Program-made: the position numbers and the translations under genes
The notes under the pieces: model-generated
Told to the model about the DNA's origin: nothing
The model's input: the letters and a program-made list of their open reading frames with translations, nothing else
Database searches by the model: none
Shown: positions 1 to 13,783 of the stretch, in pieces
Layout: every line of letters starts with the position of its first letter
Numbering within the stretch: the first letter of the stretch is position 1
Assembly: GCA_937958695.1 (NCBI GenBank)
Contig: CALGNK010000050.1
Location: 1 to 39,361, forward strand
Length of the DNA stretch: 39,361 nt
Direction of reading: 5' to 3'
From: an uncultured bacterium
GTDB taxonomy: Bacteria > DUMJ01

Positions 1-481
1 GTTCTACTTCTTCCTCAGGAGTAAGTAGCGGAATTTTACCTATTTCTCTAAGATAGAGCCTTACTGCATCATCTAGTGGTACTGCTTCCTCTACCTCTAA
101 CTCCTCTTCTAACTTCTCAACTTCTACGGGTAGTTTCTTTAATTCTTCACCATCTTCTATCTCTATACCTAGATTTAAGAGAATTTTATAGAGATAATCC
201 AAATGGTCAATATCTAAGTCCTCCCCTGGAATAGCTTTTAATATATCCCCATGGGTAACAGATCCCTGATTTCTAACCTTATCTACAAGATATTCTATAT
301 TAGAATCAAACTCTTCTAACTCTTCTTTACCTGGTCTATTTACTTCGTATCTCTTTTCTTCAATTTCTTCTCTTTTTGTCGAGTTGGTTTTTACCTTATC
401 TTCTGATAAAATCCCTTTTTCTTTTAGAAATTGTTCTATCTCTAATAAGAGTTCTTCTCCGGATAGGTCGAACTCTTCCAT
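1..481 (-). CDS. rpoD: RNA polymerase sigma-70 factor RpoD, N-terminal part (cut by left edge)
   Basis: Reverse translation of this stretch gives an open frame of 160 codons starting with ATG at 481 and running off the window. Residues about 58-112 look like sigma region 1.1 (three-helix domain with a LDYLYKILLNLGIEIED-type end). Residues 137-154 (DDAVRLYLREIGKIPLLTP) are the strongly conserved start of region 1.2 of primary sigma factors. Region 1.1 is normally found only in group 1 sigma factors, so this is probably the housekeeping sigma or a close paralogue. There is no good ribosome site; the ATG lies 4 nt after the stop codon of the upstream winged-helix gene, so translation may be coupled to it. 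Regions 2-4 are outside the window. It is unusual to find it directly at the tail of a defence operon. Confidence 0.9.
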   Translation of the reverse strand, partial: MEEFDLSGEELLLEIEQFLKEKGILSEDKVKTNSTKREEIEEKRYEVNRPGKEELEEFDSNIEYLVDKVRNQGSVTHGDILKAIPGEDLDIDHLDYLYKILLNLGIEIEDGEELKKLPVEVEKLEEELEVEEAVPLDDAVRLYLREIGKIPLLTPEEEVE

Positions 482-485
482 AGTT

Positions 486-1118
486 TTATTTTCTTTTCTT
501 GACCTCTAATACATATTTATAGCCATCTTCGGAAAGTTCCCAAATTCCGCGAGGAGAACCCCTTTTTAATAAGCCTTTCTGCACAAGGTGTAATCTTGCC
601 CATTGAGCTTTATTCTCCCATCTAATCTCCTTACCGCTTTTTAAATATTCGTAATCGTAAGGAGTTAAAATATCTTTCATTTTTATACCTACTTTTTGTA
701 TAACTTCTTGAATAGTTCCTTTTCCACCTAGTTCATAGAGGGTTTCAAGAATAGGAAGATAAAATTCCTCTATCGGTGTAAGTTTTTTGTCTAAAGTTGT
801 TTTTTCTACCTGTTTTTTATCTTTCTGAGTATTAGAAGAATATCTTACTGATAAATTTTCTAAGAGCTTGTCCTTTATTTTTCCCAACCTTTTGACTATA
901 GAAATAAATCTCTCTGCTCGATTATAATCTCTTTTGGCAATAAGGTCTTGTATCTCTTTGTTTATATTTAGTATTATTTCCTCGAAATCATTAATAATAG
1001 TGTTATTAACTTCAAGAGTTTCTTCTCTATCTTTATGCTTAGGATCTTTGTCTTTATACTGCTTTAAGTAATCTTCTATTTTACTTATTATTTCTTCTTC
1101 AAATAAATCCTCAAACAT
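486..1118 (-). CDS. Mrr-N-like winged-helix protein at the end of the BREX operon
   Basis: A 210-residue protein. Residues 1-90 are charged and mostly helical; residues 91-115 are a polar linker. Residues about 118-205 resemble the winged-helix domain found at the N terminus of Mrr-type restriction endonucleases (LPILETLYELGGKGT, later WENKAQWARLHLVQKGLL and GIWELSEDG). No Mrr catalytic domain with its D-QxK motif follows, so it is unlikely to be a nuclease itself. The start ATG comes 3 nt after the BrxL stop and has no Shine-Dalgarno site, which indicates translational coupling. It may be a DNA-binding regulator or DNA-recognition subunit of the defence system; this role is inferred from domain and position only. 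Confidence 0.75.
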   Translation of the reverse strand: MFEDLFEEEIISKIEDYLKQYKDKDPKHKDREETLEVNNTIINDFEEIILNINKEIQDLIAKRDYNRAERFISIVKRLGKIKDKLLENLSVRYSSNTQKDKKQVEKTTLDKKLTPIEEFYLPILETLYELGGKGTIQEVIQKVGIKMKDILTPYDYEYLKSGKEIRWENKAQWARLHLVQKGLLKRGSPRGIWELSEDGYKYVLEVKKRK

Positions 1119-1121
1119 TTT

Positions 1122-2558
1122 TTACTTTATCTTTATATCTGGCATCTCTTCTTTATACTCTGGGTCAATTATATGTAATTGTCTTCTTATTATTCCCCTT
1201 TTTTCTATGGCTGGCTTTAAGCAGAATATTTCAAAATCTCTCCTGTCTATATCTTCAACCTTTCTTATATGCGGGAAAAGTAATTTTAAATAACCAGTAG
1301 CGATTCTCTTTACTGCTGTTGTATCTCTCGTATCAGCTCTTGGTGGGGTTTCTATCAAGTCATCTACTATGGCAGAGTATTCTGAGCATTCTCTTAAGGA
1401 ATGAAGCACTTCAGAAAAATATTCAACGTTTAAGGTATAACCGCTTACTTTCATATCCTCGTTTATTCTGGGTAATCTCCAACCTTCTAGAAAGCCATGG
1501 AATCTATCAAATAGTGCTGATTCTTGAAAGATATCTGGAAGTTCTATAAAATAATTTCTATTTATAGGTTGTAGATCTTCAGTTAAGGAGATGTTTCCAA
1601 GAAGAATTATTCCAGCATTTGACATTCCTATAACATTAGCTATGGTAAATTTCCCATATTCCAGATAATTTTTTAAAGCCCCCTTCATTTCGTCATCATT
1701 TGAAAATTCTATTGTCTGCACCTCGTCTAAAACGACAAAATCATACTTAGTGATAAAACCAAACATATTCTTAGACATATCATAGAACATCTTAGCCCTT
1801 GTAACCTTACCGCCACTTACACACCAACTGTACTTACTTATATTGTTAAAGATATAAGATTTACCAGTCCCCTTTGGTGCAAGTTCTATCATATTAAGTC
1901 TTGGTTCTACAAAGATAAGAAGTCTTGATATAAACAATAGTTTTTGCTCTAGACTATAAAAGCCAGAAGGATTATACTCCATAGATCTTATTAGCAAGTC
2001 TATCCATTCTTTGAGTGTAAATTCTTTTCTTCCCTCTCTAAAATAGTCTAAATCAATGTCGTAAGGCTTAAAAGGTTTATAATCAACTAATTCTATAAAT
2101 GCCTCTCCTCTCACATCATTCGGAAGATAAGAAAGTGTGAAGATACCCCAGATCTCTCCACCCTTTAACTCATTGTATTTTTCTATCAAATATTCATCTA
2201 CTATCCCTTCTTTAGGACTGATGCCTAGATCAGGGATAGAGAATCTAAAGATGCCTTTCTTTATATCTGGCTCAATAATAACTCTAGTGAGAATCTTTTT
2301 TGGTTTTTTGTCGTACATTATGTCACCTTTAAATCGTTTTTCTGCTCCTTTTTGAGGGATAAACTTATCAATAAATTCCAATAATGAGTCCCGATCAAGT
2401 CTATCTTCCTCGTCAACAAATCTCTTTATAAGCCAATCTTTGATAAATGAAGGCAGATTTTTACCTTCAAATACACTATAATTTTCTTTTATCTTTAAGA
2501 CTGATTCTTCTGGAAAGACCTTTTTAATTTTTTGGTCTAAACAAGTTAATTTATTCAT
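1122..2558 (-). CDS. brxL: BrxL-type AAA+ protein of the BREX system (short form)
   Basis: 478 residues. The AAA+ core is clear: Walker A APKGTGKS at 227-234, the family block YSWCVSGGKVTRAKMFYD after it, and Walker B FVVLDEV at 274-280. The N-terminal 170 residues match the BrxL substrate- and DNA-binding region in outline. Type 1 BrxL proteins are near 680-700 residues and carry a C-terminal Lon-protease-like domain; this one ends soon after the ATPase lid, as in short type 4 forms, so no protease site is expected. Type 1 BrxL forms a ring-shaped DNA-binding ATPase; a similar role is inferred here. The start ATG overlaps the PglZ stop by 4 nt (ATGA), so the two are cotranslated. Confidence 0.88.
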   Translation of the reverse strand: MNKLTCLDQKIKKVFPEESVLKIKENYSVFEGKNLPSFIKDWLIKRFVDEEDRLDRDSLLEFIDKFIPQKGAEKRFKGDIMYDKKPKKILTRVIIEPDIKKGIFRFSIPDLGISPKEGIVDEYLIEKYNELKGGEIWGIFTLSYLPNDVRGEAFIELVDYKPFKPYDIDLDYFREGRKEFTLKEWIDLLIRSMEYNPSGFYSLEQKLLFISRLLIFVEPRLNMIELAPKGTGKSYIFNNISKYSWCVSGGKVTRAKMFYDMSKNMFGFITKYDFVVLDEVQTIEFSNDDEMKGALKNYLEYGKFTIANVIGMSNAGIILLGNISLTEDLQPINRNYFIELPDIFQESALFDRFHGFLEGWRLPRINEDMKVSGYTLNVEYFSEVLHSLRECSEYSAIVDDLIETPPRADTRDTTAVKRIATGYLKLLFPHIRKVEDIDRRDFEIFCLKPAIEKRGIIRRQLHIIDPEYKEEMPDIKIK

Positions 2559-4894
2559 AGCAAATCCCTTTCTATAGATCCTCCCTTTATAATTATATTC
2601 TTGTCTATTTTAAAATTACCAATTGTAAAAGTAATGATATATTCTCCCGGTTTAAGTTTTGAAAGATTTAGCTTGTAGATATCTTCTATAGAACTAAAAA
2701 CAGCTAATTCTTTATTTTCGCTTTTGACCATAATACTAGTCTTAGGTCGTGGATAGACAGAAAAATTCAATACAGGATCCCTAACTGTTAATACATCATT
2801 TAATAATTTAACTTCATAGAAGACTTCTTCAAGGGGAATCTTTGATGCGTATATTATAGGGACAAGAGTTTCCTCAGGTGTAGCTCCTCCATGTGTTTCA
2901 GGAGAAGATAGGTAAGAAAATGAATCATATCTTAAGGCAATCAAATATCTTTCATTTTTCTCCAGTTCTTCTCTTTGATAGATAATATAATCTTCATCTG
3001 AATCTGAAAATATAGAGATGTCTCCATCTAAAACTCCATATCTTCCCTCTCTTTCGGAAACTTTTATTAATGGAAGTCTTCCTTCTTGAAATTTTCTATT
3101 TGCAAATGAAGTAAATCCATGGTCCGAAAAGATTAAGAATCTATCCTTTAAGCTTATTATCTTTTTTATTATTTTCTCTATTATCTCTAATTCTCTAATT
3201 AAATCCTCTGGATACTTGTAAATTGATTGGCTGTGAATAAAATCATCTAACTCTGATAGCCTGTCTACATCCTCTAATTTATTAAATTCTGTAGATGTGG
3301 GAAGTTTTGCTACCGCAATATTAAAATCGACATAAAAGCCTTTAGCAGTTAAAAGGTTTACTATAAAAGGTAAAAATTCTAATGAAAGGGCATCAATCCA
3401 AATTCTTTCGAATCCCTCTTTCAAGAAATCTTCAACTTTCCCAAAAGAGTAATACCATTTATAAAAGGTACTTGAACTAGCATTTTTCTCATTTAGGATA
3501 TTTAAAAGTCTTTCTGTGGGACTATTTTTTATTCTAGAAGTCCTGTACTCTTTAAAATATTCCTTGATCCATAGTTGATCTGTTTTTAAGTTTGAGTAGC
3601 TAATATCTCTAAGATAGTAGTTTAGTTCTGGATATAACTCTTCTAGGTTTTTAATGATATCAATATTTTTAATAGTCCATTCTTTCTCGTATAATGTGGT
3701 GCAAGTGATATAATGTAAAGCCTCTTTTGGTTCAAGGCTTTCAATTTTATTCTTTAAATATTCGTCTATAAAGCTTAAATCTAGACTTCTTTCTCTAACG
3801 AACTCTTTTATTACTCTTCTTCTTTCTTCTATTAATTTTGGATTAGGTTTCTCCTCAAATATTTTTAGATAGTAATTTTTGAGAATATCTATATTATCAT
3901 AGGTATTAGTAGAGGATAGAACTTTGTTTATATATGTATTTCTCTTAGCTAATTTACAATCAAAATAGTTTTTTATGAGCCAGCGATGAAATTCTGTATC
4001 GTATCTGAACCACAAAGATAAAATATTTTCTTCGTCTAATTTCTTAATGTTAAAATAGTCTTCTGTAAATTCAAAAAAATTACTTGCTTTACTATTTGTA
4101 ATCTCATTTATTAGACATTTCCAAAATCTTTCTTCTTGCACGTTATAAGAAAACGGAACTTTAAATTTATAAATCTCTGACAGATAGTCTCTAATATTAT
4201 CTACTCTAACTATATTAAATAATTCATCACCTACAATCTTGTTGGAATAATAATTTAAAATATTAGAAGTGCAGATAATCCTCTCACTTAAATCCTCTTC
4301 TTTCCAGAGGTTAAGAAAATCTTTTGAGCTCGAAATTATAGTGAGAAAACTTGGATGAGATTCTAAATTAAAGTTGACAAAGTATAATGAGTATTTTTCT
4401 GTATTCCCAATCACTTTCCATATTGGAATAAATTCAGACCTTCGATGATATCTATCCCAGAAAGTAAGCATAAACTTTTGATTAATTCCGACTAGTGGAA
4501 TATAGATTCTCCTATAGAAATATTGTTCAGGATTTTCAATATCCATAAAACTGCTAAATAATGAAAGGAATTCATCGTTTGCAAGGAACCTAGCAAATTC
4601 TGAAATAGAAGGTATTATAAAACTCCTTTTTTGGTCTAAGTTCTTTATGTTATTAATAATAGAAGTGACAGTTAACCAACTATCCGAATTGTTTTTGAAA
4701 ACATTTGACTCTGTTAATTCGAATATATCAGCTTTTTTTATTAACAATTTTACAATTTCCCTTAGATCTTTGAAACTACTTAAAAGTATAAATCTAATAG
4801 GATATCTATTATAGGATGGTAGATTTGTATATCTATCTTCCTCTATTAGAGGGAAAAACTCTTTCTTATTAACCTCAGTTGGATAAGGATTCAT
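2555..4894 (-). CDS. pglZ: PglZ-domain protein (alkaline phosphatase fold), BREX core
   Basis: 779 residues. The PglZ domain occupies about residues 490-700: WIDALSLEFLP from W499 with D501 as a likely metal ligand, SDHG at 590-593 (D591, H592), and the family signature HGGATPEETLVP from H668. These positions match the metal site of the alkaline phosphatase superfamily. The N-terminal 480 residues are helix-rich and divergent, with no recognisable domain; the last 80 residues form a beta-rich tail. PglZ is the one protein common to all BREX types and binds other BREX components; its enzymatic role is not well defined. It overlaps the BrxC stop by 4 nt (ATGA) and BrxL by 4 nt. Confidence 0.9.
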   Translation of the reverse strand: MNPYPTEVNKKEFFPLIEEDRYTNLPSYNRYPIRFILLSSFKDLREIVKLLIKKADIFELTESNVFKNNSDSWLTVTSIINNIKNLDQKRSFIIPSISEFARFLANDEFLSLFSSFMDIENPEQYFYRRIYIPLVGINQKFMLTFWDRYHRRSEFIPIWKVIGNTEKYSLYFVNFNLESHPSFLTIISSSKDFLNLWKEEDLSERIICTSNILNYYSNKIVGDELFNIVRVDNIRDYLSEIYKFKVPFSYNVQEERFWKCLINEITNSKASNFFEFTEDYFNIKKLDEENILSLWFRYDTEFHRWLIKNYFDCKLAKRNTYINKVLSSTNTYDNIDILKNYYLKIFEEKPNPKLIEERRRVIKEFVRERSLDLSFIDEYLKNKIESLEPKEALHYITCTTLYEKEWTIKNIDIIKNLEELYPELNYYLRDISYSNLKTDQLWIKEYFKEYRTSRIKNSPTERLLNILNEKNASSSTFYKWYYSFGKVEDFLKEGFERIWIDALSLEFLPFIVNLLTAKGFYVDFNIAVAKLPTSTEFNKLEDVDRLSELDDFIHSQSIYKYPEDLIRELEIIEKIIKKIISLKDRFLIFSDHGFTSFANRKFQEGRLPLIKVSEREGRYGVLDGDISIFSDSDEDYIIYQREELEKNERYLIALRYDSFSYLSSPETHGGATPEETLVPIIYASKIPLEEVFYEVKLLNDVLTVRDPVLNFSVYPRPKTSIMVKSENKELAVFSSIEDIYKLNLSKLKPGEYIITFTIGNFKIDKNIIIKGGSIERDLL

Positions 4895-7800
4895 AGGAGA
4901 TTCTCCAAATCTGAAATAATTTGAGGATGTTTGTCTACAATATTTAATAGTATCTCTCTTAAATCTTTATTTGTAGACCTGACCTTCTCTTTAATTCTTT
5001 CTTTCTTTTTCTCAGATATCAAACTCCACAAATTACTACGTATCCAATTTTCTACCCTGTCTTTATTCCAGTAGTAGTCTTCGGCTTTCATCTTTCGCCT
5101 TATTTCACTAGCAATACTCTGCAGATCCTCTTCGAAGCCAAGTAAGTCTCTTAGCCAGCCAATGAAGAATTCCTCAGCAGATTTTTTGTTAATAAGATCC
5201 TCCAATGATACAAGATTTTCTTTAATCATATCCAATAGCTCTTTTATCAATTCAGTTGGATATTGCACATCGGAAGTAATGAATTTTCTGATTCTCTCGA
5301 AAATTAGGCTTAATTTAGAGTCTTTTACCAATTCGAAGCTCCAAAAGGGATAAAGAGTACTATATATCTTACTCTTTATCTTATCCCTTAAGTCTCTTAT
5401 ATTAATATTATCTTCAATTTTAAATACATTCATCATATTTTTGGTAAAGCTAAACTGTATTATATGTTCTTCTAAATCACTTTCTCTCCAAAGGTGAGGA
5501 TTTTTGTCAATGTTATTTCGGATAAAACCTAAACACATTGGTATATCTTCTTCTGGAATCCCTTTTTCTCTCAACCATTGCTTCATCCCTTGTTCTAAAA
5601 TATTCCTTTGTAGGTTTGCGAATAGTATCGATTTGCAAGTTTTTAAATCATCTAAAAATTTAGATATATGTTCACGAGAAAATTCGTAGTCCAACCTAAT
5701 AAATTCTTCGATGAATTTAATTAGTTTGCTGTCAATATTTATGACCTTGTTAATTATCCATAAAGGATAACATAAGTTTTTATCTATATATGTCTTTATA
5801 GCCTCTTTCAGTTCCCTCTGATCTTTAGCATTTTCTATTCTGAATATTTCTCTTAATATCTTTATAAACTCGATTTTATCCCTAGACTCTTCTTTTTCCT
5901 TCTCCCAATCTTTTAATTTTAACTTTATTTTATCTTCGTTCCAGAGAGCTACTTCTTCTTGCATATTCTTATGAAGATAGTCTATAACTTCTTTGACCTC
6001 CTCATCATCTACCTTTATATCTTCTAGATTTTTGAGCCATCTCATAAAGCCTTCTCTGATTTTCTCAGCACTTAGGAGTAGTCTTAAATCAGTTTTAGTA
6101 TACTTCAGTATTTCTAATATACTTTTCACTTTATCTTCTAGCAACTCTCTATCAATGGTCCTAACAAGGTAATCTATTGCTTCTATAGCTAAGCATAATC
6201 CTTTATTTCCCTGAACTAGAGTTTTAATACTCCATATAGGTAGTCCATTTAACTTTATCCACTTCCAAATATTCCACCTTACATTATTTAAGTTTCCTCC
6301 TTCTTCTATATTAAATAAGTAGGTTAATGTATCTGTTAGCTCTTTCTCTTCATTAGTACCAAGTCTTACCTCTAAGCTATCTCTATCTTTATTACTGGTC
6401 CAATATTTGAATAGAGACGTTACTTTTTCTTTTAAAATCTCCTTAGTCAGTCTCCTTCCAGTACCTGTCTCAGAAAGTTTTCCTACGAAGGGCTTTAAAG
6501 CAAGAGATAATACAGCGTAATTAACCTTATTAGGATATAAACCATAAGGTGGTTTCTTTAGAAACCCCAAAACATCTCCTAAGTTAAAATTTTTACCTTC
6601 TTCCATTTCTAATGTCCTTTCAACCTCTTTACATATTCTGACCGTAGGGTGGTCTGGATCAGTGTCGTCATAGATTCTAAGCGTTTTATCTACAATATAC
6701 TCTCCCCTGTCTGATTGTAGTATTCCGAGTAAATACTTATATGGAGCATTCTTTAGTTTATCCTCTAGAAAATCCCTCCTATCTTCATAAAGGAAAATCT
6801 CTGCAACTTTTTCTGGAAATGAGGTTTTCCACACGTTTCTATTCTCAGTTAATCGTTCCAGCTGTTCTAAACCAAATCTGAATATCTGTGGAGATAGAGA
6901 TTTATTTATCTCGTCGTAAAGTAAATTGAAAGGTTTTTTATATGCCTTATCCTGAAAAATTATTTCTACATAATCTGTTTCGATCTTATTTAACCATTGC
7001 TCTATAATCTTATCAATATAATTGGTATTAATCTTAGCCTCTTCTGCATACATGTGTTTTTCTGCTACCTTCCTTCTTGCATTATACTCTATCAGTTTAT
7101 CGTAATTATCATCTTTTAGGACGCTATCAGAGATAATAAATATTATATCTTTTGCTTCTTCCACTTCGTTAATAATCTCTTTAAGTTTATCTTCAAGTTC
7201 TCGTATTTCCGATTTATTTTTAGATAAAAATAATGCAATGTTTAAGGTGTACGAGTTAATAAAATTATTTTTTATTATTCTTCTTAGCTCTTGTATACTT
7301 ATTCCTGCCCAATAGACCTGTACATTAGCTTCCCTTAAAATATTACTTTTAATCTTCTCTCCTAAGAGATCTTTCTTTTCTATACTGAAAAATCTTGTAA
7401 TGTCTTTATATTCTCTTTTAGCTAATTCTTTTTCTTGAGAGACTTCATAGGTAGGTAGAGGAGTTTGAGAGATAAGATAAAACCTATTAGGATCCATTTG
7501 AATGCACTTCTGATCTATATATTCTAATACTTCATCTAATGACCTTTCATAGCTTGTCCCTAGAAACATATCGCGGATATTATCTTCAGAAGGAGCATAA
7601 ATGGAACCTTCAGAGGGGGTTAAGGCAACATAAGACTGAATCAAATTAAGAAGAAGTATCCCTTTAAAAATGGCTAGATATTGAGGCCCTTTATTCTTTA
7701 GAATTTCATAGTACATATTATATTTTGCAACTATGGTATTAATCTTTTCTTCTTGCCTTCTCTTAAAGTCATCTAGAAAATAATCCCACAATACATCAGC

Positions 7801-9042
7801 AGTAAGAAAATATTCTTTTGTATCTTCCTTAGGATACTCCTTTATAAATCTAAAGAATCCTTTTTTATCATCATATAAGAAGTTGAATATGCTTCTTTCG
7901 GTAGAACCTATATAACGAGATAAAGCTGTAGCCAGCTGAGCAGTATATGGATGAATAGGAAAAAGATCTTTAACCACATTAATTAGAGACAAATCATTTT
8001 CTGCGATTTTAAGAAGTACTCTAACAAGTTCTGAATTTTTGTCGTAACTATCATCCCTTAATAGCTTCCATTTATTGTAGTCTTTTTTCTTGATAGTGTT
8101 AGAAATAATGTGGAAGGTAGTTATATTTTCCATAGAATAGGTTTTAAATTCAAACCGTCCTAGAATCTTTTCTTGATCCATCCTAGACACTTGACTTTGT
8201 TCTGGTAATCTATGGGAAATTACAAACAAAAATATATTTTCGTTGAAGCTCTTTTCTGCAATATTTTGTAGAATAGTAAGAATAGCAGAGCTTGTGGAAA
8301 GTTCTATTATCGGGGTAAACTCATCCCAATAGATAGCAATATGGGAAATACCTCTATTCTGAAGTTCTAATAGAACTTCGGAGAGCCATTGTTCTATACT
8401 TGGGTGAGGAATATGAAAAGCTGTAGATTCTTCTAAAATACTTAAAATCTTAACGTTATTATTCGCCAATTCTTTCAAAAGACCATCTATATCCCCTACT
8501 ACTGACTTTAATTCTATATTATTATCTACTATATAGCGCCAATCTATAGATTTATCATTTTGAATGTTCTCTATATATTTTTCGAATTCACTTTTAGTTT
8601 TTATTTCAATGTTTTCAGCTTTTAAGGCATTTTTAACCGCTTCTTCTATGATAAGACTAAAGCTTTTTGTATTGTCTATTCCAGAAATGCCTTTTAAAAT
8701 TACGGGAAAAACTCTATTTTCCTTTCTAAAGTTTCTAAGCTTTTCCTTTATTTGATTGTCGGGGATTTTTTCTATAAAATCCTCTATATGATTTACTTCG
8801 TCCCATAATAGATGTTTTATTACTCCAGTAGCATGACTTTTACCTGTTCCATAAGTACCTTGAAGCCACATTGATTTTCTGGTTTTACTATCTCTTGAAC
8901 TCAAAGAGTTTAAAAACGTTCCTAAAGAGTCTATAAAGTCCCTCGTAGGAATAAATTGTTTCCAGTAGTCTTTTCTCTCTTGTTTAATATCATACACAGG
9001 TTGAAAGTACTCATAAAGTCCTAATATCTGTTCATAATTCAT
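4891..9042 (-). CDS. brxC: BrxC-type giant P-loop ATPase, BREX core
   Basis: About 1383 residues, the size expected for BrxC/PglY proteins. The ATPase domain is N-terminal: Walker A GTYGTGKS at 62-69 and Walker B HIAIYWDEF near 234-242, followed by SHRLPE near 275-280 (sensor-like region). The middle (450-860) contains winged-helix-like and coiled segments. The C-terminal third (about 920-1340) is made of three repeats of roughly 140-155 residues, each with tryptophans at equivalent places (W936/W1094/W1233, W1001/W1155/W1295, W1033/W1184/W1324). It has a good ribosome site (GGGAGG, 9 nt before ATG) lying inside the end of the preceding DUF4007 gene. BrxC ATPases are essential in characterised BREX systems; they are thought to act with PglZ on DNA. 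Confidence 0.88.
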   Translation of the reverse strand: MNYEQILGLYEYFQPVYDIKQERKDYWKQFIPTRDFIDSLGTFLNSLSSRDSKTRKSMWLQGTYGTGKSHATGVIKHLLWDEVNHIEDFIEKIPDNQIKEKLRNFRKENRVFPVILKGISGIDNTKSFSLIIEEAVKNALKAENIEIKTKSEFEKYIENIQNDKSIDWRYIVDNNIELKSVVGDIDGLLKELANNNVKILSILEESTAFHIPHPSIEQWLSEVLLELQNRGISHIAIYWDEFTPIIELSTSSAILTILQNIAEKSFNENIFLFVISHRLPEQSQVSRMDQEKILGRFEFKTYSMENITTFHIISNTIKKKDYNKWKLLRDDSYDKNSELVRVLLKIAENDLSLINVVKDLFPIHPYTAQLATALSRYIGSTERSIFNFLYDDKKGFFRFIKEYPKEDTKEYFLTADVLWDYFLDDFKRRQEEKINTIVAKYNMYYEILKNKGPQYLAIFKGILLLNLIQSYVALTPSEGSIYAPSEDNIRDMFLGTSYERSLDEVLEYIDQKCIQMDPNRFYLISQTPLPTYEVSQEKELAKREYKDITRFFSIEKKDLLGEKIKSNILREANVQVYWAGISIQELRRIIKNNFINSYTLNIALFLSKNKSEIRELEDKLKEIINEVEEAKDIIFIISDSVLKDDNYDKLIEYNARRKVAEKHMYAEEAKINTNYIDKIIEQWLNKIETDYVEIIFQDKAYKKPFNLLYDEINKSLSPQIFRFGLEQLERLTENRNVWKTSFPEKVAEIFLYEDRRDFLEDKLKNAPYKYLLGILQSDRGEYIVDKTLRIYDDTDPDHPTVRICKEVERTLEMEEGKNFNLGDVLGFLKKPPYGLYPNKVNYAVLSLALKPFVGKLSETGTGRRLTKEILKEKVTSLFKYWTSNKDRDSLEVRLGTNEEKELTDTLTYLFNIEEGGNLNNVRWNIWKWIKLNGLPIWSIKTLVQGNKGLCLAIEAIDYLVRTIDRELLEDKVKSILEILKYTKTDLRLLLSAEKIREGFMRWLKNLEDIKVDDEEVKEVIDYLHKNMQEEVALWNEDKIKLKLKDWEKEKEESRDKIEFIKILREIFRIENAKDQRELKEAIKTYIDKNLCYPLWIINKVINIDSKLIKFIEEFIRLDYEFSREHISKFLDDLKTCKSILFANLQRNILEQGMKQWLREKGIPEEDIPMCLGFIRNNIDKNPHLWRESDLEEHIIQFSFTKNMMNVFKIEDNINIRDLRDKIKSKIYSTLYPFWSFELVKDSKLSLIFERIRKFITSDVQYPTELIKELLDMIKENLVSLEDLINKKSAEEFFIGWLRDLLGFEEDLQSIASEIRRKMKAEDYYWNKDRVENWIRSNLWSLISEKKKERIKEKVRSTNKDLREILLNIVDKHPQIISDLENLL

Positions 9043-9826
9043 TATCTCTTCCTCCCAAATATTTTCTTAACATATCAATACTATTTATTTCTCTAAAAAG
9101 ATAAATATAACTTTTACTTTCATCTATTGAAAACTTATAGAAAGAACTAAGTTTTGAACTTCCCAAAAGAGACCTTTCTAAGTTTTGAAAAGAAATAGAA
9201 AATATTTTCTGTGGTGAAAGTAAAATGTGTTCTATCTCTTGAAGTTTGAGTTTATAAATGCTTTCCTCCTCTGCAATTTTATATAGATTGTATAAAATTA
9301 ATACTGGAGATAAATTTTTACAGCCTGTCTTTGTAATCTCTCTTATAATTCTCCCTTTTCTACCAGGTATTCCCTGTCCAAATAATTTTCCAATCTGACT
9401 TTCAGTTAAAGTTTCTATTATGCTACTAAATCCACTTTTGATACATTTATTACTCTTGCCATAAGAAACAATAAGATTATTTAATAATTCTTCTCTAGAA
9501 TAATTATCAGCTTCTAGAGTTGTCCACCATCTGTATAAACAGGAATTGAAACATAAATTTATCCAAATTATTCCCCATAAAATTTGAGATTCTGATCCTT
9601 CTTTAAAGTAGACATCTCTAAGTATGTGAAAAAGATGGGTAAGACTTTTCTTTTTGTCTATTAATTCTGAATTCCTAAGATAGTAGACAAAGGCTTCAAT
9701 TTGCTTGGGCCCTAAAGAGTTGTCCTCAAAGAAGTTAGACCCCTTATTTAGAAAGTTATACAACCATTCTTGCCTCAATCCAAAAGATTGATATTTGAAA
9801 CCTTTAACACTTACCATACATTCCAT
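9032..9826 (-). CDS. Stand-alone DUF4007 protein of the BREX operon
   Basis: 264 residues from the first ATG; a second ATG three codons later (9817) is an equally good start, since it lies 10 nt after a GGAG and overlaps the BrxP stop as ATGGTAA. The whole chain resembles DUF4007, a helical DNA-binding-like family that often neighbours PAPS-reductase-type DNA modification proteins. It also aligns along its full length with residues 532-790 of the upstream BrxP protein (LGPKQIEAFVYYLRNSEL versus LGNKQLESMIQWLKDSEL; IIWINLCFNS versus IIWINLFYNS; KTGCKNLSPVLILYNLY versus KTGSDNIHPIAVLYTLY). It therefore arose by duplication or fission of the same domain. It overlaps BrxP by up to 16 nt and BrxC by 11 nt. 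Function unknown; a target-recognition or adaptor role is a guess. Confidence 0.82.
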   Translation of the reverse strand: MECMVSVKGFKYQSFGLRQEWLYNFLNKGSNFFEDNSLGPKQIEAFVYYLRNSELIDKKKSLTHLFHILRDVYFKEGSESQILWGIIWINLCFNSCLYRWWTTLEADNYSREELLNNLIVSYGKSNKCIKSGFSSIIETLTESQIGKLFGQGIPGRKGRIIREITKTGCKNLSPVLILYNLYKIAEEESIYKLKLQEIEHILLSPQKIFSISFQNLERSLLGSSKLSSFYKFSIDESKSYIYLFREINSIDMLRKYLGGRDNEL

Positions 9827-12183
9827 ACTCCATACTCTAAAATTTGAGAATAGTCAGTTACTGAATTAGAAAGATAGATGTTATCTAAATCAGCTGATAG
9901 ATCAACTTTAATTAGCTCACTTCTATTTTCTTGTAGCCATCTTAAAATGTTTTCTAGCGCTGGTCTTGAGATACCAAAGATTAGGTACGGTCCTCCATCT
10001 TTATTATCTTTCTTGTAAAATTCTGAGACTGTTAAGTTGTATTTACCCTTAGATATAGCATATCTATAAAGCGTATAAAGAACCGCTATCGGATGTATAT
10101 TATCAGAACCTGTCTTACTAAGATATCTATTTTCACCCATCTTTTCAATGTTACCTAAACGCATCTTTTTAAATTGTGGAACATTTTCTAGCATATTTAT
10201 TAATGAATATATACCACTTGAAGCTGTTCTTTTATTCATCCCTTCTTTACTTACTAAAGTTTCAATCAAATTAACAGAAGATAACACTGAATTCCAATCC
10301 AAATTCTGAAGATACCATTTTACGACCGAAGAATTATAAAATAAATTAATCCAAATTATCTGATAAAAAAGGTCTTTATCTTTATCATATATTCTCTTTA
10401 ATTTAAGACTTAAGTCCGTTGGAATTTTTTCTTTAGCTTTTAATAATTCTGAATCTTTCAACCACTGGATCATACTTTCTAACTGTTTATTACCTAAATT
10501 ATTTGTCGAAAACCAATTTTCCATGTTAGAAATATACCCTTCTAACCATATAGCTCTCATTCCAAACGTTAAATATCTCCCAAATCCTTTTAGATTCTCG
10601 TCCCCTTTCATAGTTCCTCCTATTCTATCAACAGACTTTGCTAAAAGACATCCGTTTTCGACGAAATCTAAACATCTAAAGCAGTGAATACACTTATTTG
10701 TATCTATTTTTAAATTAGGTAATGTTGCTATAGCTAAAGAAGGACACTCAGCTTCGCAGTTCCCACAGAGTATGCAGTATGTTGTCTTATAAAGGATTTT
10801 TTTAACTTTACCTAATTCTGAAGAATTTAAATTACACCAAATATCAACAATTGCCCTTTGATTATCTATTTCATAAAGGAAAGACAAACTTTTAGAGCCT
10901 AGAAATATTTCTCCGCTAAATTTCTTCTCATCTCTTTTTCTTATATCGGCAGGTCCTAATATCTTTAGCCATTCAAAAAAATTTTCCCTGGGATTTCTAA
11001 TAATTACTTTTAATCTATCATTTAGTTCTATAAAGTCTATTCTAGTAGTATCTCTTTCTACACCTTCTCCTCCTCCCCTTTTTTTCCAATTTCCTTGAAT
11101 AATATATTTTTTTATTTCTTTCTCATCTGTAATGCCTAAATTTTTAATGTGCTCTGTTATTATCTTTATATATTCGTCAACATAAGTGTTATATTTCTGA
11201 TTCAATATGAACTCTGACCAAGAAGAACCAAAAGGACAAATACTACATCCTATTCTACTAAGTCCAATTCTGTATCCTTTGTTCATTAAGATATTCCTAA
11301 AATAGATGTATAAGAAAACCTCAGCAGTATTCCAATATCTAATAACCTCTGCATTAATCTGTATGTAGTGTTTTACTTCTTCAGCAATTCTTTCGTATCC
11401 GCTTCTTCTCAAGCTCTCCTCTGCTCTTACTCCGTCAAAGACTAAAATTTTTAGTTTATCTTTCTCTGGATTTAAAGATCTTAGTAGTCTTATCTGCGGA
11501 GATGTCTTATACACAGAACAGCACCATCTTATTATCCTGCTAGGAGGCCCAAAGATTTTCCAGAGATCATAAGAATGTTTCTCATTTCTTGCTACATAAA
11601 ACTTTAAATTGGGATATAAGTTTGTATAATATTCCTTTGTCTTTTCATATACTTCATAAGTCGGAGGTATTTCCATAGTAGTATCGGTAAAGATAACAAT
11701 GTAATCGTCTGGAGATAAGGCTCTTGAAACTAAATCTAGCACTACTTGTGAATCTTTCCCTCCACTAAATGATACTATAAAGAAGTCAACTTTATCTTTA
11801 TACTTTTTGTGGGTATCATTTATAAAGTCTATAGCCTCCCCTTCTATAACTTTGAGATTATTCTTGTTTTTTCTTATTAACTCCTTAATGTTGATAGGTT
11901 CTAATTCTAGATGATTTCCATTATCAGCAAGAATTACTTTAGGATCCTCAAATATATTACCACCCTTTACTTCAGCCACTAGCTCCCCTCTGTAATAGTA
12001 TCGCCTCCCTATATTCCAGAGTAATGGCTCTTCACACTTGGGATAATGCCAGTAATTATTTAATCCTAAAAGGTCTAATTCTTCGTAAAATACTGGTCTT
12101 GGGGGAACAATTTCTTGAGAAGACTCTAAACCATCAACTAAGAGCACTCCATTTGAATCTTTATCCCAGACAACCTTATACAA
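9811..12183 (-). CDS. brxP: BrxP: PAPS reductase-like, ferredoxin and DUF4007 fusion protein
   Basis: 790 residues, first gene of the operon. The start is TTG at 12183, supported by AGGAGGAGG just upstream and no in-frame ATG nearby. Domains in order: an N-terminal region (1-115) with a GRRYYYRGELVAEV strand block; a PAPS reductase/ATP-pyrophosphatase domain (115-330) with the PP-loop SFSGGKDS at 138-145 and four cysteines C221, C222, C313, C316 placed to hold an Fe-S cluster, as in DndC-like proteins; a 2[4Fe-4S] ferredoxin (C470, C473, C476, C480 and C498, C501, C504, C512); and a DUF4007 domain (532-790). PP-loop enzymes adenylate a substrate; together with Fe-S clusters this points to a sulfur or other redox modification, plausibly of DNA. 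That chemistry is inferred. It defines the operon as type 4 BREX. Confidence 0.88.
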   Translation of the reverse strand: MYKVVWDKDSNGVLLVDGLESSQEIVPPRPVFYEELDLLGLNNYWHYPKCEEPLLWNIGRRYYYRGELVAEVKGGNIFEDPKVILADNGNHLELEPINIKELIRKNKNNLKVIEGEAIDFINDTHKKYKDKVDFFIVSFSGGKDSQVVLDLVSRALSPDDYIVIFTDTTMEIPPTYEVYEKTKEYYTNLYPNLKFYVARNEKHSYDLWKIFGPPSRIIRWCCSVYKTSPQIRLLRSLNPEKDKLKILVFDGVRAEESLRRSGYERIAEEVKHYIQINAEVIRYWNTAEVFLYIYFRNILMNKGYRIGLSRIGCSICPFGSSWSEFILNQKYNTYVDEYIKIITEHIKNLGITDEKEIKKYIIQGNWKKRGGGEGVERDTTRIDFIELNDRLKVIIRNPRENFFEWLKILGPADIRKRDEKKFSGEIFLGSKSLSFLYEIDNQRAIVDIWCNLNSSELGKVKKILYKTTYCILCGNCEAECPSLAIATLPNLKIDTNKCIHCFRCLDFVENGCLLAKSVDRIGGTMKGDENLKGFGRYLTFGMRAIWLEGYISNMENWFSTNNLGNKQLESMIQWLKDSELLKAKEKIPTDLSLKLKRIYDKDKDLFYQIIWINLFYNSSVVKWYLQNLDWNSVLSSVNLIETLVSKEGMNKRTASSGIYSLINMLENVPQFKKMRLGNIEKMGENRYLSKTGSDNIHPIAVLYTLYRYAISKGKYNLTVSEFYKKDNKDGGPYLIFGISRPALENILRWLQENRSELIKVDLSADLDNIYLSNSVTDYSQILEYGVWNVW

Positions 12184-12295: not shown

Positions 12296-13783
12296 TTAAT
12301 CTGCAGGTGCTGTTAGCTCTTCATATAGGAATAAAAGCCACTGGTAGCCTTGATTAGATTGAGCAAAATCTAAAGCATTATATTTAGTGTATCCATCATT
12401 ATAATAATAAAGACTGGAAGGAAACCATATGGAGTATCCCTTTGCGCTGGAGTATCCTGAGTAATTGAAGTAGGGTGTAGATAAAGTAATATCATCTATA
12501 AGTTTTAGTGCGGTATTCCGAAGATTGTTATGACTTGTATAGTTTGCTATAAGATTTGCAAATTGGTAGAGGTCTATATAGACATCTGGATAATTCGAGT
12601 AAGGAGAAAAACCTTGCGTTTGATTCCTCAAATTCATAATATCACTAGCAGAGTTACCAATACATTCTCTTAAATAATTGGCAAAATGATAGATGTCATC
12701 AACAATAGCATCTACTTTAGATAGGTCCTTTACCGCTATGGTTCTTTCTATTCTGGGGTAACTATTGAAGTATGTCTGAGCTATTAATATACCTAGACTT
12801 TCAGAAGGCATAGTAGAATTTAATACAAGCTGATTAAACATAATATCCCATCTAGTTATACCTACCCAACCAATAGCCTCAGATGAGACAAGATAGCTTA
12901 CCAAATCCTTTATCTCATAGTCAACCTCTATATTCCCCATAACGCAGGCATCAAAAAATAAAAGGTCAATCTTTCTTCTAAGAAGATTTTTTACAGATTG
13001 CAATACTGATTTTATTTCTGTTATAGAGATAGAATCTCCCCCATATATGTCGTCCCAGCATATATCTCTAACCAAATTTTCTCCTAATACTCTTTTCCTC
13101 CATCCACTTCCATGATCTCCAATAATTATTAAATACTTTTTGGCTGGGAAGTTTTGTATTCCGTAATTTAGAAAATTCTGTAAAGTATTTGGATCCCCAA
13201 AGTTATAATTCCCTTGAGCTAAAGTCTCAAAAGCTCCATTGTGAAAGTAGTATAGATACGAAAGTGGGTTTGTCCCGCTAAGCCCAGCAAGAATTAGTAT
13301 ATTTATACCTGCAGTCGAAGTAACATTTGAAAGACGACTCAATTCATTCTGAAAATATGGACCTAAATTGTTATGTCCATCTATGTACCACAAAACACTC
13401 CATTCTACATTGATTGTTACAGATTTTGATGCCTCACTAATATTCCCTAATTTGTCTATAGCTTTTACTGTAATTGTATGTATCGTATTATGTCTAAGCC
13501 CGCTTGTATCCCAATTGCACTGATATGGGTTTGTTTGATCTTCTCCTATCTTGTTACCATCTACATAAAATTCCACCCTTTGAATTCCATTTGAAGTTTT
13601 TAAAAATTTATTCTTACTTATGGCTTGAGCTTCAATTTGAACTATTGCAGAGCCAGGAACTATATTATCTGGACTAGTGATAGTAACAAGAGGATTTTCC
13701 CAGCATCCGCTACATCCAGATTGTCCTATTATAAATAGACCAAGTATTATATAAAGCACTAAAAAACTCAGGCGTTTTTTCAT
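12296..13783 (-). CDS. Clostripain-family (C11) lipoprotein protease with Ig-like domain
   Basis: 495 residues. An N-terminal hydrophobic segment (4-20) ends in QSGC with C24 as the likely lipid-bearing cysteine, so the protein is probably an exported lipoprotein; the lipobox is not fully canonical. Residues about 30-125 look like a bacterial Ig-like domain (VEFYVDGNKIGED, then VKAIDKLGN). Residues 128-495 are a caspase-fold peptidase of the clostripain family, with the catalytic pair H224 in GDHGSGW and C280 in FDACVMG. It has no Shine-Dalgarno site; an extended -10 element ends 8 nt before the ATG, so the mRNA may be leaderless. It lies 112 bp upstream of the BREX operon on the same strand, but nothing else ties it to that system. 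Confidence 0.85.
   Translation of the reverse strand: MKKRLSFLVLYIILGLFIIGQSGCSGCWENPLVTITSPDNIVPGSAIVQIEAQAISKNKFLKTSNGIQRVEFYVDGNKIGEDQTNPYQCNWDTSGLRHNTIHTITVKAIDKLGNISEASKSVTINVEWSVLWYIDGHNNLGPYFQNELSRLSNVTSTAGINILILAGLSGTNPLSYLYYFHNGAFETLAQGNYNFGDPNTLQNFLNYGIQNFPAKKYLIIIGDHGSGWRKRVLGENLVRDICWDDIYGGDSISITEIKSVLQSVKNLLRRKIDLLFFDACVMGNIEVDYEIKDLVSYLVSSEAIGWVGITRWDIMFNQLVLNSTMPSESLGILIAQTYFNSYPRIERTIAVKDLSKVDAIVDDIYHFANYLRECIGNSASDIMNLRNQTQGFSPYSNYPDVYIDLYQFANLIANYTSHNNLRNTALKLIDDITLSTPYFNYSGYSSAKGYSIWFPSSLYYYNDGYTKYNALDFAQSNQGYQWLLFLYEELTAPAD

What the first reader, a model, noticed from the sequence alone, without database searches (positions are those of the whole stretch)
486..12183. Type 4 BREX-like operon without a methyltransferase, with extra components
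BrxP, BrxC, PglZ and BrxL are recognised from motifs and order, matching the published type 4 BREX gene set, one of the least studied types. Added to it are a second DUF4007 gene and a winged-helix gene, all overlapping or abutting. No PglX-type methyltransferase lies in the run; self/non-self marking would then depend on the PAPS-reductase-like protein. That last step is inference.
Basis: partly seen in the sequence, partly recalled or inferred. Interest (0 to 1): 0.82.

Follow-up and report, generated by a model that had tools for sequence, protein, structure and literature searches.

The report
BREX type 4 with tagged sigma factor
This is a bacterial anti-phage (BREX type 4) gene cluster whose missing methyltransferase is normal for its type; unexpectedly, its operon runs on into a winged-helix DNA-binding gene and a second copy of the cell's main transcription-initiation (sigma) factor, both carrying the same short N-terminal tag, which suggests a link between this immune system and transcription.

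Summary
Window 486-12183 (minus strand) is a compact type 4 BREX operon: BrxP, a stand-alone DUF4007 protein, BrxC, PglZ (BREX_PglZ_4, E 2.8e-168), BrxL (TIGR02688) and an Mrr_N winged-helix gene. Lacking a methyltransferase is the defining, published state of type 4 BREX, which uses phosphorothioation, so that headline is already known. The stand-alone DUF4007 folds like SspB and forms one ancient clade in several phyla.

The operon continues 4 bases on into a sigma-70 factor gene (481 to the contig end at 1). The genome keeps its normal dnaG-rpoD elsewhere. A tagged BREX sigma follows brxL in three Dictyoglomota genomes, and a sigma remnant decays with the operon in a fourth. The sigma and winged-helix proteins share a ~25-residue acidic N-terminal helix absent from their ordinary homologues: the three winged-helix N-termini rank top among about 1,050 ORFs. 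In this genome the sigma body has been overwritten by host rpoD. I found no report of a sigma factor in BREX; the only precedent found is MzaA in MzaABCDE.

Most likely the tag docks both proteins to the BREX complex; that step is inferred. A new variant of a known kind.

The parts
9811..12183 (-). BrxP, 790 aa (TTG start): PP-loop ATP-pyrophosphatase/PAPS-reductase domain, Cys-rich 4Fe-4S domain, C-terminal SspB-like DUF4007 domain
   Evidence: PADLOC PDLC02510 E 5e-288; PF01507 8e-23; PF13237 5.5e-06; DUF4007 3.7e-05. SGGKDS loop and Cys residues invariant or near-invariant in 8 homologues
9032..9826 (-). Second, stand-alone DUF4007 protein, 264 aa, SspB-like tandem winged-helix fold
   Evidence: PDLC02511 E 2.7e-44; AF2 model pLDDT 89, pTM 0.89; only PDB matches with E<=0.001 are SspB 6juf/6lb9, E 1.4e-06; separate clade from BrxP-fused DUF4007, support 99/98
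4891..9042 (-). BrxC, 1383 aa AAA+ ATPase, weaker match to SspC
   Evidence: PDLC02472 E 1.3e-273, SspC 5.9e-24; QGxYGTGKS (Walker A) and WDEF (Walker B) present across 6 homologues, most positions invariant
2555..4894 (-). PglZ type 4, 779 aa (alkaline-phosphatase superfamily nuclease/hydrolase)
   Evidence: NF033445 BREX_PglZ_4 E 2.8e-168; invariant D501, D550; near-invariant D591 H592 H668 in 11 sequences
1122..2558 (-). BrxL, 478 aa AAA+ without the long C-terminal Lon-like domain
   Evidence: TIGR02688 E 2.1e-154; BrxL_ATPase 1.2e-116; BrxL_N 4.8e-22
486..1118 (-). MrrN: 210 aa, N-terminal tag helix (1-25), predicted coiled coil, Mrr_N winged helix (118-201); no Mrr nuclease domain
   Evidence: PF14338 E 5.5e-15; orthologues after brxL in G222 and G388; ordinary relatives start after the tag
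1056..1118 (-). N-terminal tag of MrrN: MFEDLFEEEIISKIEDYLKQY
   Evidence: Scores 46.8 against sigma tags; best non-tag ORF N-terminus 31.8 among 1,057 ORFs; 0/500 shuffles
1..481 (-). BREX-linked sigma-70 factor, 5' part (160 codons, cut by the contig end): tag, region 1.1, start of region 1.2. The 3' end lies at the end of contig C44 of the same genome
   Evidence: PF03979 7.9e-08, PF00140 7.8e-12; second rpoD on C57 next to dnaG; 3' end on C44; linkage by synteny in G001
413..481 (-). N-terminal tag of the sigma: MEEFDLSGEELLLEIEQFLKEKG (absent from the housekeeping RpoD)
   Evidence: Alignment; matches to the G079, G222, G388 sigma tags 58, 52, 41 points

Best explanation
A type 4 (phosphorothioation) BREX operon of a thermophile sub-lineage that has gained a second SspB-like subunit and two tagged accessory proteins. 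Core (follows from the family): BrxP activates DNA backbone phosphates with ATP and inserts sulfur supplied by a housekeeping cysteine desulfurase; the DUF4007 (SspB-like) subunits find and nick the target DNA; BrxC is the AAA+ engine; PglZ (nuclease/hydrolase) and BrxL (DNA-translocating AAA+) block DNA without the mark. Accessory part (operon membership and shared tag shown, function inferred): a winged-helix protein (MrrN) and a primary-type sigma-70 factor carry the same ~25-residue acidic amphipathic N-terminal helix. I propose that this tag docks both on the same BREX subunit, so that sigma connects the complex to RNA polymerase or promoter DNA and MrrN to other DNA. Either BREX is recruited to transcribed incoming DNA, or the sigma is held by the complex and released on infection to keep transcription running. 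My estimate: tag = docking site on BREX 0.5; sigma acts at ordinary RpoD-type promoters as part of defence 0.4.
For: Families and intact operon. Second DUF4007 = SspB fold and own clade; SspB is a nicking nuclease needed for phosphorothioation (PMC8092258). SufS-like desulfurase elsewhere in the genome; no PglX. Sigma after brxL in G000, G079, G222 and (truncated, tag + region 4) G388; sigma remnant decaying beside brxP and pglZ remnants in G389. Housekeeping dnaG-rpoD is separate in each genome where checked: G000, G079, G222. BREX sigmas of G079 and G222 are 52% identical to each other but about 45% to their own RpoD, while those RpoDs are 90% identical, so the BREX sigma is an old paralogue that travels with BREX. 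Tag shared by sigma and MrrN: the three MrrN N-termini outrank all other ORFs, and about nine ordinary MrrN relatives lack it. BREX DNA is 31% GC; the sigma body is 35.8%, like host rpoD at 35.2%, and differs from it by 9 bases in 317, all in the 5' part, so it has been overwritten by, or copied from, host rpoD and presumably reads RpoD promoters.
Against: No experiment. The window's sigma is cut by the contig end; its middle is collapsed in the assembly and its end is placed by synteny and homology. G079 keeps the sigma but lacks MrrN and the second DUF4007, so the accessories are not obligatory. In G388 the sigma has lost regions 1.2-3, and brxP and the second DUF4007 gene are broken there. 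The tagged sigma was found only in Dictyoglomota and the window's genus. The tag's partner is unknown. Several of the nine differences from host rpoD change amino acids, so some decay of the sigma body cannot be excluded.
Confidence: 0.72

Rival explanations
1. Autoregulation: the tagged sigma is simply the operon's own sigma factor. It transcribes the BREX genes when the host sigma is inhibited or scarce, and the tag is a regulatory element (for example an anti-sigma binding site or a degradation signal).
For: Sigma factors as last gene of the operon they control are common (general knowledge). Region 2 and region 4.2 contact residues (TRERIRQIE, WWI[RK]Q) are kept.
Against: Does not explain why a non-sigma winged-helix protein of the same operon carries the same tag. 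A body overwritten by host rpoD gives it the host's promoter choice, not a private one. Only one weak promoter-like match upstream of brxP, about chance level.
Confidence: 0.25
2. Decoy or backup sigma: phages often inactivate or hijack the host primary sigma; the operon carries a spare RpoD so that anti-sigma proteins are titrated, or transcription continues, or attack is sensed.
For: In the window genome the sigma body is kept almost identical to host RpoD (97.2% DNA over 317 bases, the last ~140 bases identical), as a decoy would need.
Against: In Dictyoglomota the BREX sigmas are only about 45% identical to host RpoD, poor for a decoy. No direct evidence.
Confidence: 0.15
3. Chance neighbours: the sigma and MrrN genes only happen to lie behind brxL; the system is a plain type 4 BREX and nothing else.
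For: Most type 4 loci have a Zn-finger gene and cysteine desulfurase there, and no sigma.
Against: Same order and tight spacing in two phyla (G000, G222), sigma also in G079 and G388, co-decay in G389; shared tag; a BrxC remnant at the same flank in G001 with loss of everything up to the flanking gene.
Confidence: 0.08
4. Assembly artefact or strain mixture: the second rpoD start is a misjoin in a metagenome bin.
For: Contig ends C50 and C57 share an exact 141-base overlap with C4, a typical assembly-graph break; the sigma's middle part is not separately assembled.
Against: The window's copy has a 53-residue extension and 9 base differences from the housekeeping copy; a distinct 3' end exists on C44; C44's flanking gene is next to a BrxC remnant in G001; complete tagged sigmas follow brxL in G079 and G222.
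Confidence: 0.07

Closest known systems
BREX type 4 (brxPCZL)
   Same: BrxP, BrxC, PglZ type 4, BrxL in canonical order; no methyltransferase
   Different: Adds a stand-alone SspB-like DUF4007 beside the fused one, and tagged MrrN and tagged sigma-70 after brxL; lacks the cysteine desulfurase and Zn-finger genes found at many type 4 loci
Ssp phosphorothioation systems (SspABCD with SspE or SspFGH)
   Same: The DUF4007 protein folds like SspB (6juf, 6lb9); BrxC matches SspC; BrxP PP-loop domain matches SspD
   Different: PglZ and BrxL instead of SspE/SspFGH; SspD- and SspB-like domains fused in BrxP; no SspA
MzaABCDE
   Same: A defence operon with a primary-type sigma-70 factor (MzaA called a sigma factor in PMC9523054; the BREX sigma matches PADLOC MzaA, E 2.5e-60)
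   Different: No MzaB-E homologues in the operon; the MzaA model also matches ordinary RpoD equally well, so this is no special kinship; no shared tag reported
Small coiled-coil plus Mrr_N winged-helix proteins of restriction and Dnd/Pbe loci
   Same: Same family as MrrN; two examples sit directly before DndD/PbeC-like genes
   Different: They lack the N-terminal tag

Membership tests
BREX type 4 | PglZ of the type 4 class | tested here: met
   NF033445 E 2.8e-168, 561.8 bits against cut-off 140
BREX type 4 | BrxP (PAPS-reductase-like, with 4Fe-4S and DUF4007) in place of a PglX methyltransferase | tested here: met
   PDLC02510 E 5e-288; no PF07669 match in the genome
BREX type 4 | BrxC and BrxL in the same operon, order P-C-Z-L | tested here: met
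BREX type 4 | Cysteine desulfurase in the operon (56% of type 4 taxa per PMC12839542; not obligatory) | tested here: not met
   None in the operon; SufS-like enzyme elsewhere, C25 E 4.5e-159
BREX type 4 | Makes phosphorothioate in host DNA and restricts phage | not testable with these tools
   Needs LC-MS/MS or PT-seq and plaque assays; literature only for relatives (PMC11931770)
Ssp system | SspB-fold subunit | tested here: met
   Foldseek 6juf_B E 1.4e-06, prob 1.00, TM 0.68
Ssp system | SspE or SspFGH effector next to sspBCD | tested here: not met
   None in the operon by PADLOC, Pfam or NCBIfam; effectors are PglZ and BrxL
MzaABCDE | MzaB-E (MutL, Z1, DUF, AIPR) beside the sigma | tested here: not met
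   No such families in the operon
Mrr / type IV restriction enzyme | Mrr catalytic nuclease domain | tested here: not met
   Only Mrr_N PF14338 in 210 aa, no Mrr_cat
Primary-type sigma-70 factor | Regions 1.2, 2 and 4 with RNAP and promoter contacts | tested here: met
   G222: r1.2 1.2e-09, r2 2.2e-22, r4 8.7e-18; G079 r1.2, r2, r4; window only r1.1 and r1.2, cut by the contig end

The most novel reading that the evidence does not exclude
A BREX system with its own sigma factor: the tagged sigma and tagged winged-helix protein are docked to the BREX complex through a common helix, coupling phosphorothioate-based DNA surveillance to RNA polymerase or promoter DNA (transcription-coupled immunity).
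Probability: 0.3. Interest if true: 0.8.

Novelty: new variant of a known kind. Interest (0 to 1): 0.58.

Why it matters
How BREX finds incoming DNA early and is kept from attacking its own cell is unsettled. An operon that encodes a copy of the cell's main sigma factor with a putative docking tag shared by a DNA-binding partner points to a physical link between BREX and transcription, testable by pull-down and deletion. It also shows a defence operon whose sigma body has been replaced by the host's own rpoD.

Tried and rejected
PF08665 as a PglZ test: no match in the genome although PglZ is clearly present. Sequence search of the DUF4007 alignment against PDB chains: none at E<=1; fold comparison was needed. 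Viral contigs as a source of more tagged loci: only canonical or distant hits. The 180-aa Coprothermobacter protein after brxL looked tagged, but the similarity is weak (12-24 of 500 shuffles reach it): not claimed. PglZ N-termini as tag relatives: next-best scores but far lower (31.8 against 46-52): not pursued. Single-sequence fold of MrrN: pLDDT 52, not used beyond helix prediction. First idea that the sigma was simply the housekeeping rpoD next door: rejected, because dnaG-rpoD is on C57. First script of the tag test timed out and was rewritten. Yuan et al. on phosphorothioation by BREX type 4 (PMC12914056) is not held; cited only through papers that quote it.
Full report
WHAT IS THERE. 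Seven genes lie head to tail on the minus strand from 12183 to the contig end at 1. BrxP 12183-9811 (PADLOC E 5e-288; PAPS-reductase, 4Fe-4S and DUF4007 domains), a stand-alone DUF4007 protein 9826-9032, BrxC 9042-4891 (E 1.3e-273), PglZ 4894-2555 (NF033445 BREX_PglZ_4, 561.8 bits against a cut-off of 140), BrxL 2558-1122 (TIGR02688, E 2.1e-154) and an Mrr_N winged-helix protein 1118-486. Neighbouring genes overlap by 4-16 bases or are 3-4 bases apart. The seventh starts at 481, four bases behind the Mrr_N gene, and is a sigma-70 factor with regions 1.1 and 1.2; it runs off the window. The BREX stretch is 31% G+C, the rest of the window 36%.

THE METHYLTRANSFERASE. Type 4 BREX has none by definition: it is replaced by a phosphorothioation apparatus (PMC12839542), and brxPCZL is listed as one of three known phosphorothioate-making gene families (PMC11931770). 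A whole-genome search for the PglX-type Eco57I family finds none here, while it rings in 11 of 14 control genomes. The operon has no cysteine desulfurase, but a full SufS-like enzyme is encoded elsewhere; published type 4 loci carry one in 56% of taxa, the rest presumably using a housekeeping enzyme.

ACTIVE SITES. The PP-loop SGGKDS and the cysteines of BrxP, the Walker motifs of BrxC and the acidic and histidine metal-site candidates of PglZ are invariant or nearly so among homologues. Nothing in the window's six complete genes looks broken.

THE SECOND DUF4007. Of 8 genomes among 386 that ring for the DUF4007 profile, 5 have both a fused and a stand-alone copy; more occur in named genomes (Coprothermobacter platensis, Cryosericum hinesii, a Syntrophaceae MAG). 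In a tree the stand-alone copies form one clade apart from the fused ones (99/98), except one long-branched row. The AlphaFold2 model (pLDDT 89) has only SspB structures as PDB matches below 0.001 (6juf, 6lb9). SspB is reported as a nicking nuclease needed for phosphorothioation (PMC8092258). So this is an old, separate subunit, not a recent duplicate.

THE SIGMA FACTOR. Same-genus genomes G001 and G002 have an RpoD of 369 residues behind dnaG. The window's genome has that gene on C57, cut by the contig end, and the window's sigma as a second copy: a 53-residue extension, then 317 bases 97.2% identical to the C57 copy. Both contig ends share exactly 141 bases with the start of C4, a graph break caused by the repeat. 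What I read as the second copy's own 3' end is at the end of C44: the last 70 codons, with a different C-terminus. C44 continues into a UroD-like gene. In G001 the orthologue of that gene is preceded by a remnant of BrxC (68-86% identical), which links C44 to the BREX operon independently of the assembly and shows that BREX was once present in G001. G002 has the gene without BREX remnants.

THE SAME IN DICTYOGLOMOTA. G222: brxL, Mrr_N gene, sigma of 332 residues. The G222 operon is split over two contigs inside brxL. G079: brxL, sigma of 307 residues. G388: brxL, Mrr_N gene, then a 171-residue sigma that kept only the tag and region 4, with brxP and the second DUF4007 broken. G389: only remnants of brxP, pglZ and sigma side by side. 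Sigma therefore moves and decays with BREX. The G079 and G222 BREX sigmas are 52% identical to each other and about 45% to their own RpoD, whereas those RpoDs are 90% identical: an old paralogue, not repeated capture. In the window's genome its body was replaced by host rpoD (identity and G+C content).

THE SHARED TAG. The first ~25 residues of the BREX sigmas read like MPDYDLYEEELFRRIEEFLKE. I scored the N-termini of about 1,050 ORFs from the fetched loci against the four sigma tags: after the sigmas themselves the best three are the three Mrr_N proteins of these operons (51.5, 46.8, 45.8; next 31.8); no shuffle of 500 reached any of them. Ordinary small Mrr_N proteins from other genomes align only from model position ~31-42 on and lack the tag; housekeeping RpoDs lack it too. 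Two unrelated DNA-binding proteins of one operon thus share one added helix.

HOW IT MAY WORK. Shown: operon membership by gene order and spacing, homology, shared tag. From family knowledge: sulfur transfer by BrxP, nicking by SspB-like subunits, restriction by PglZ and BrxL. Inferred: the tag docks sigma and MrrN on the same BREX subunit. Because the sigma keeps the RpoD reading head, and in this genome nearly equals the host's, it would bring the complex to ordinary promoters or RNA polymerase, or be released to keep transcription going. Autoregulation and decoy are the main rivals.

WHAT IS KNOWN. The 2026 survey of BREX (PMC12839542) mentions sigma only as a fold resemblance inside BrxL. 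A search for Dictyoglomus with BREX finds no paper. MzaA of MzaABCDE is called a sigma factor (PMC9523054), so a sigma factor in a defence operon has a precedent; none was found for BREX. The PADLOC MzaA model also rings for ordinary RpoD.

LIMITS. Literature search covers open-access PMC only. The window's sigma is incomplete. The tagged sigma is confirmed as a full gene in two genomes (G079, G222), and in part in three more. No activity was tested.

Noticed in passing
L140:2222-12922 (G388): In the genome whose size matches Dictyoglomus thermophilum, brxP and the second DUF4007 gene are broken, while brxC, pglZ, brxL and mrrN are open; sigma is reduced to tag + region 4. The genome matching D. 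turgidum (L141:7711-9102) has only remnants of brxP, pglZ and sigma.
   Followed up: partly
L231:1-484 (G001): BrxC remnant directly upstream of the UroD-like gene in a same-genus genome that otherwise lacks BREX: loss at the same site.
   Followed up: yes
L245:805-3554, L246:2-2130: Small coiled-coil plus winged-helix proteins of the MrrN family (Mrr_N by Pfam in L245; L246 by the MrrN profile only) lie directly before DndD/PbeC-like genes; possible readers or partners in phosphorothioation systems.
   Followed up: partly
L124:4923-8577 (G183): Three MrrN-like winged helices in a row on the main contig: one fused to a protein that looks like a DUF262/GmrS type, two stand-alone.
   Followed up: no
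L123:1147-2145, L129:5292-6335: PADLOC's MzaA model (PDLC02203) scores ordinary housekeeping RpoD as high as the BREX sigma (E 1e-71), so MzaA calls by that model alone would be unsafe.
   Followed up: yes
L018:4701-5243 and L052:21194-21733: Coprothermobacter type 4 loci have, after brxL, a ~180-residue acidic protein without a Pfam family; its N-terminus only faintly resembles the tag.
   Followed up: partly
L038:5515-8835, L040:6503-9730: In two Firmicutes type 4 loci the large variable gene upstream of brxP gives weak matches to a sigma profile (E 5.5e-09 and 2.5e-04).
   Followed up: no
window 12296-13783: Clostripain-family (C11) protease with an Ig-like domain directly upstream of the operon, same strand; looks unrelated to BREX.
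   Followed up: no
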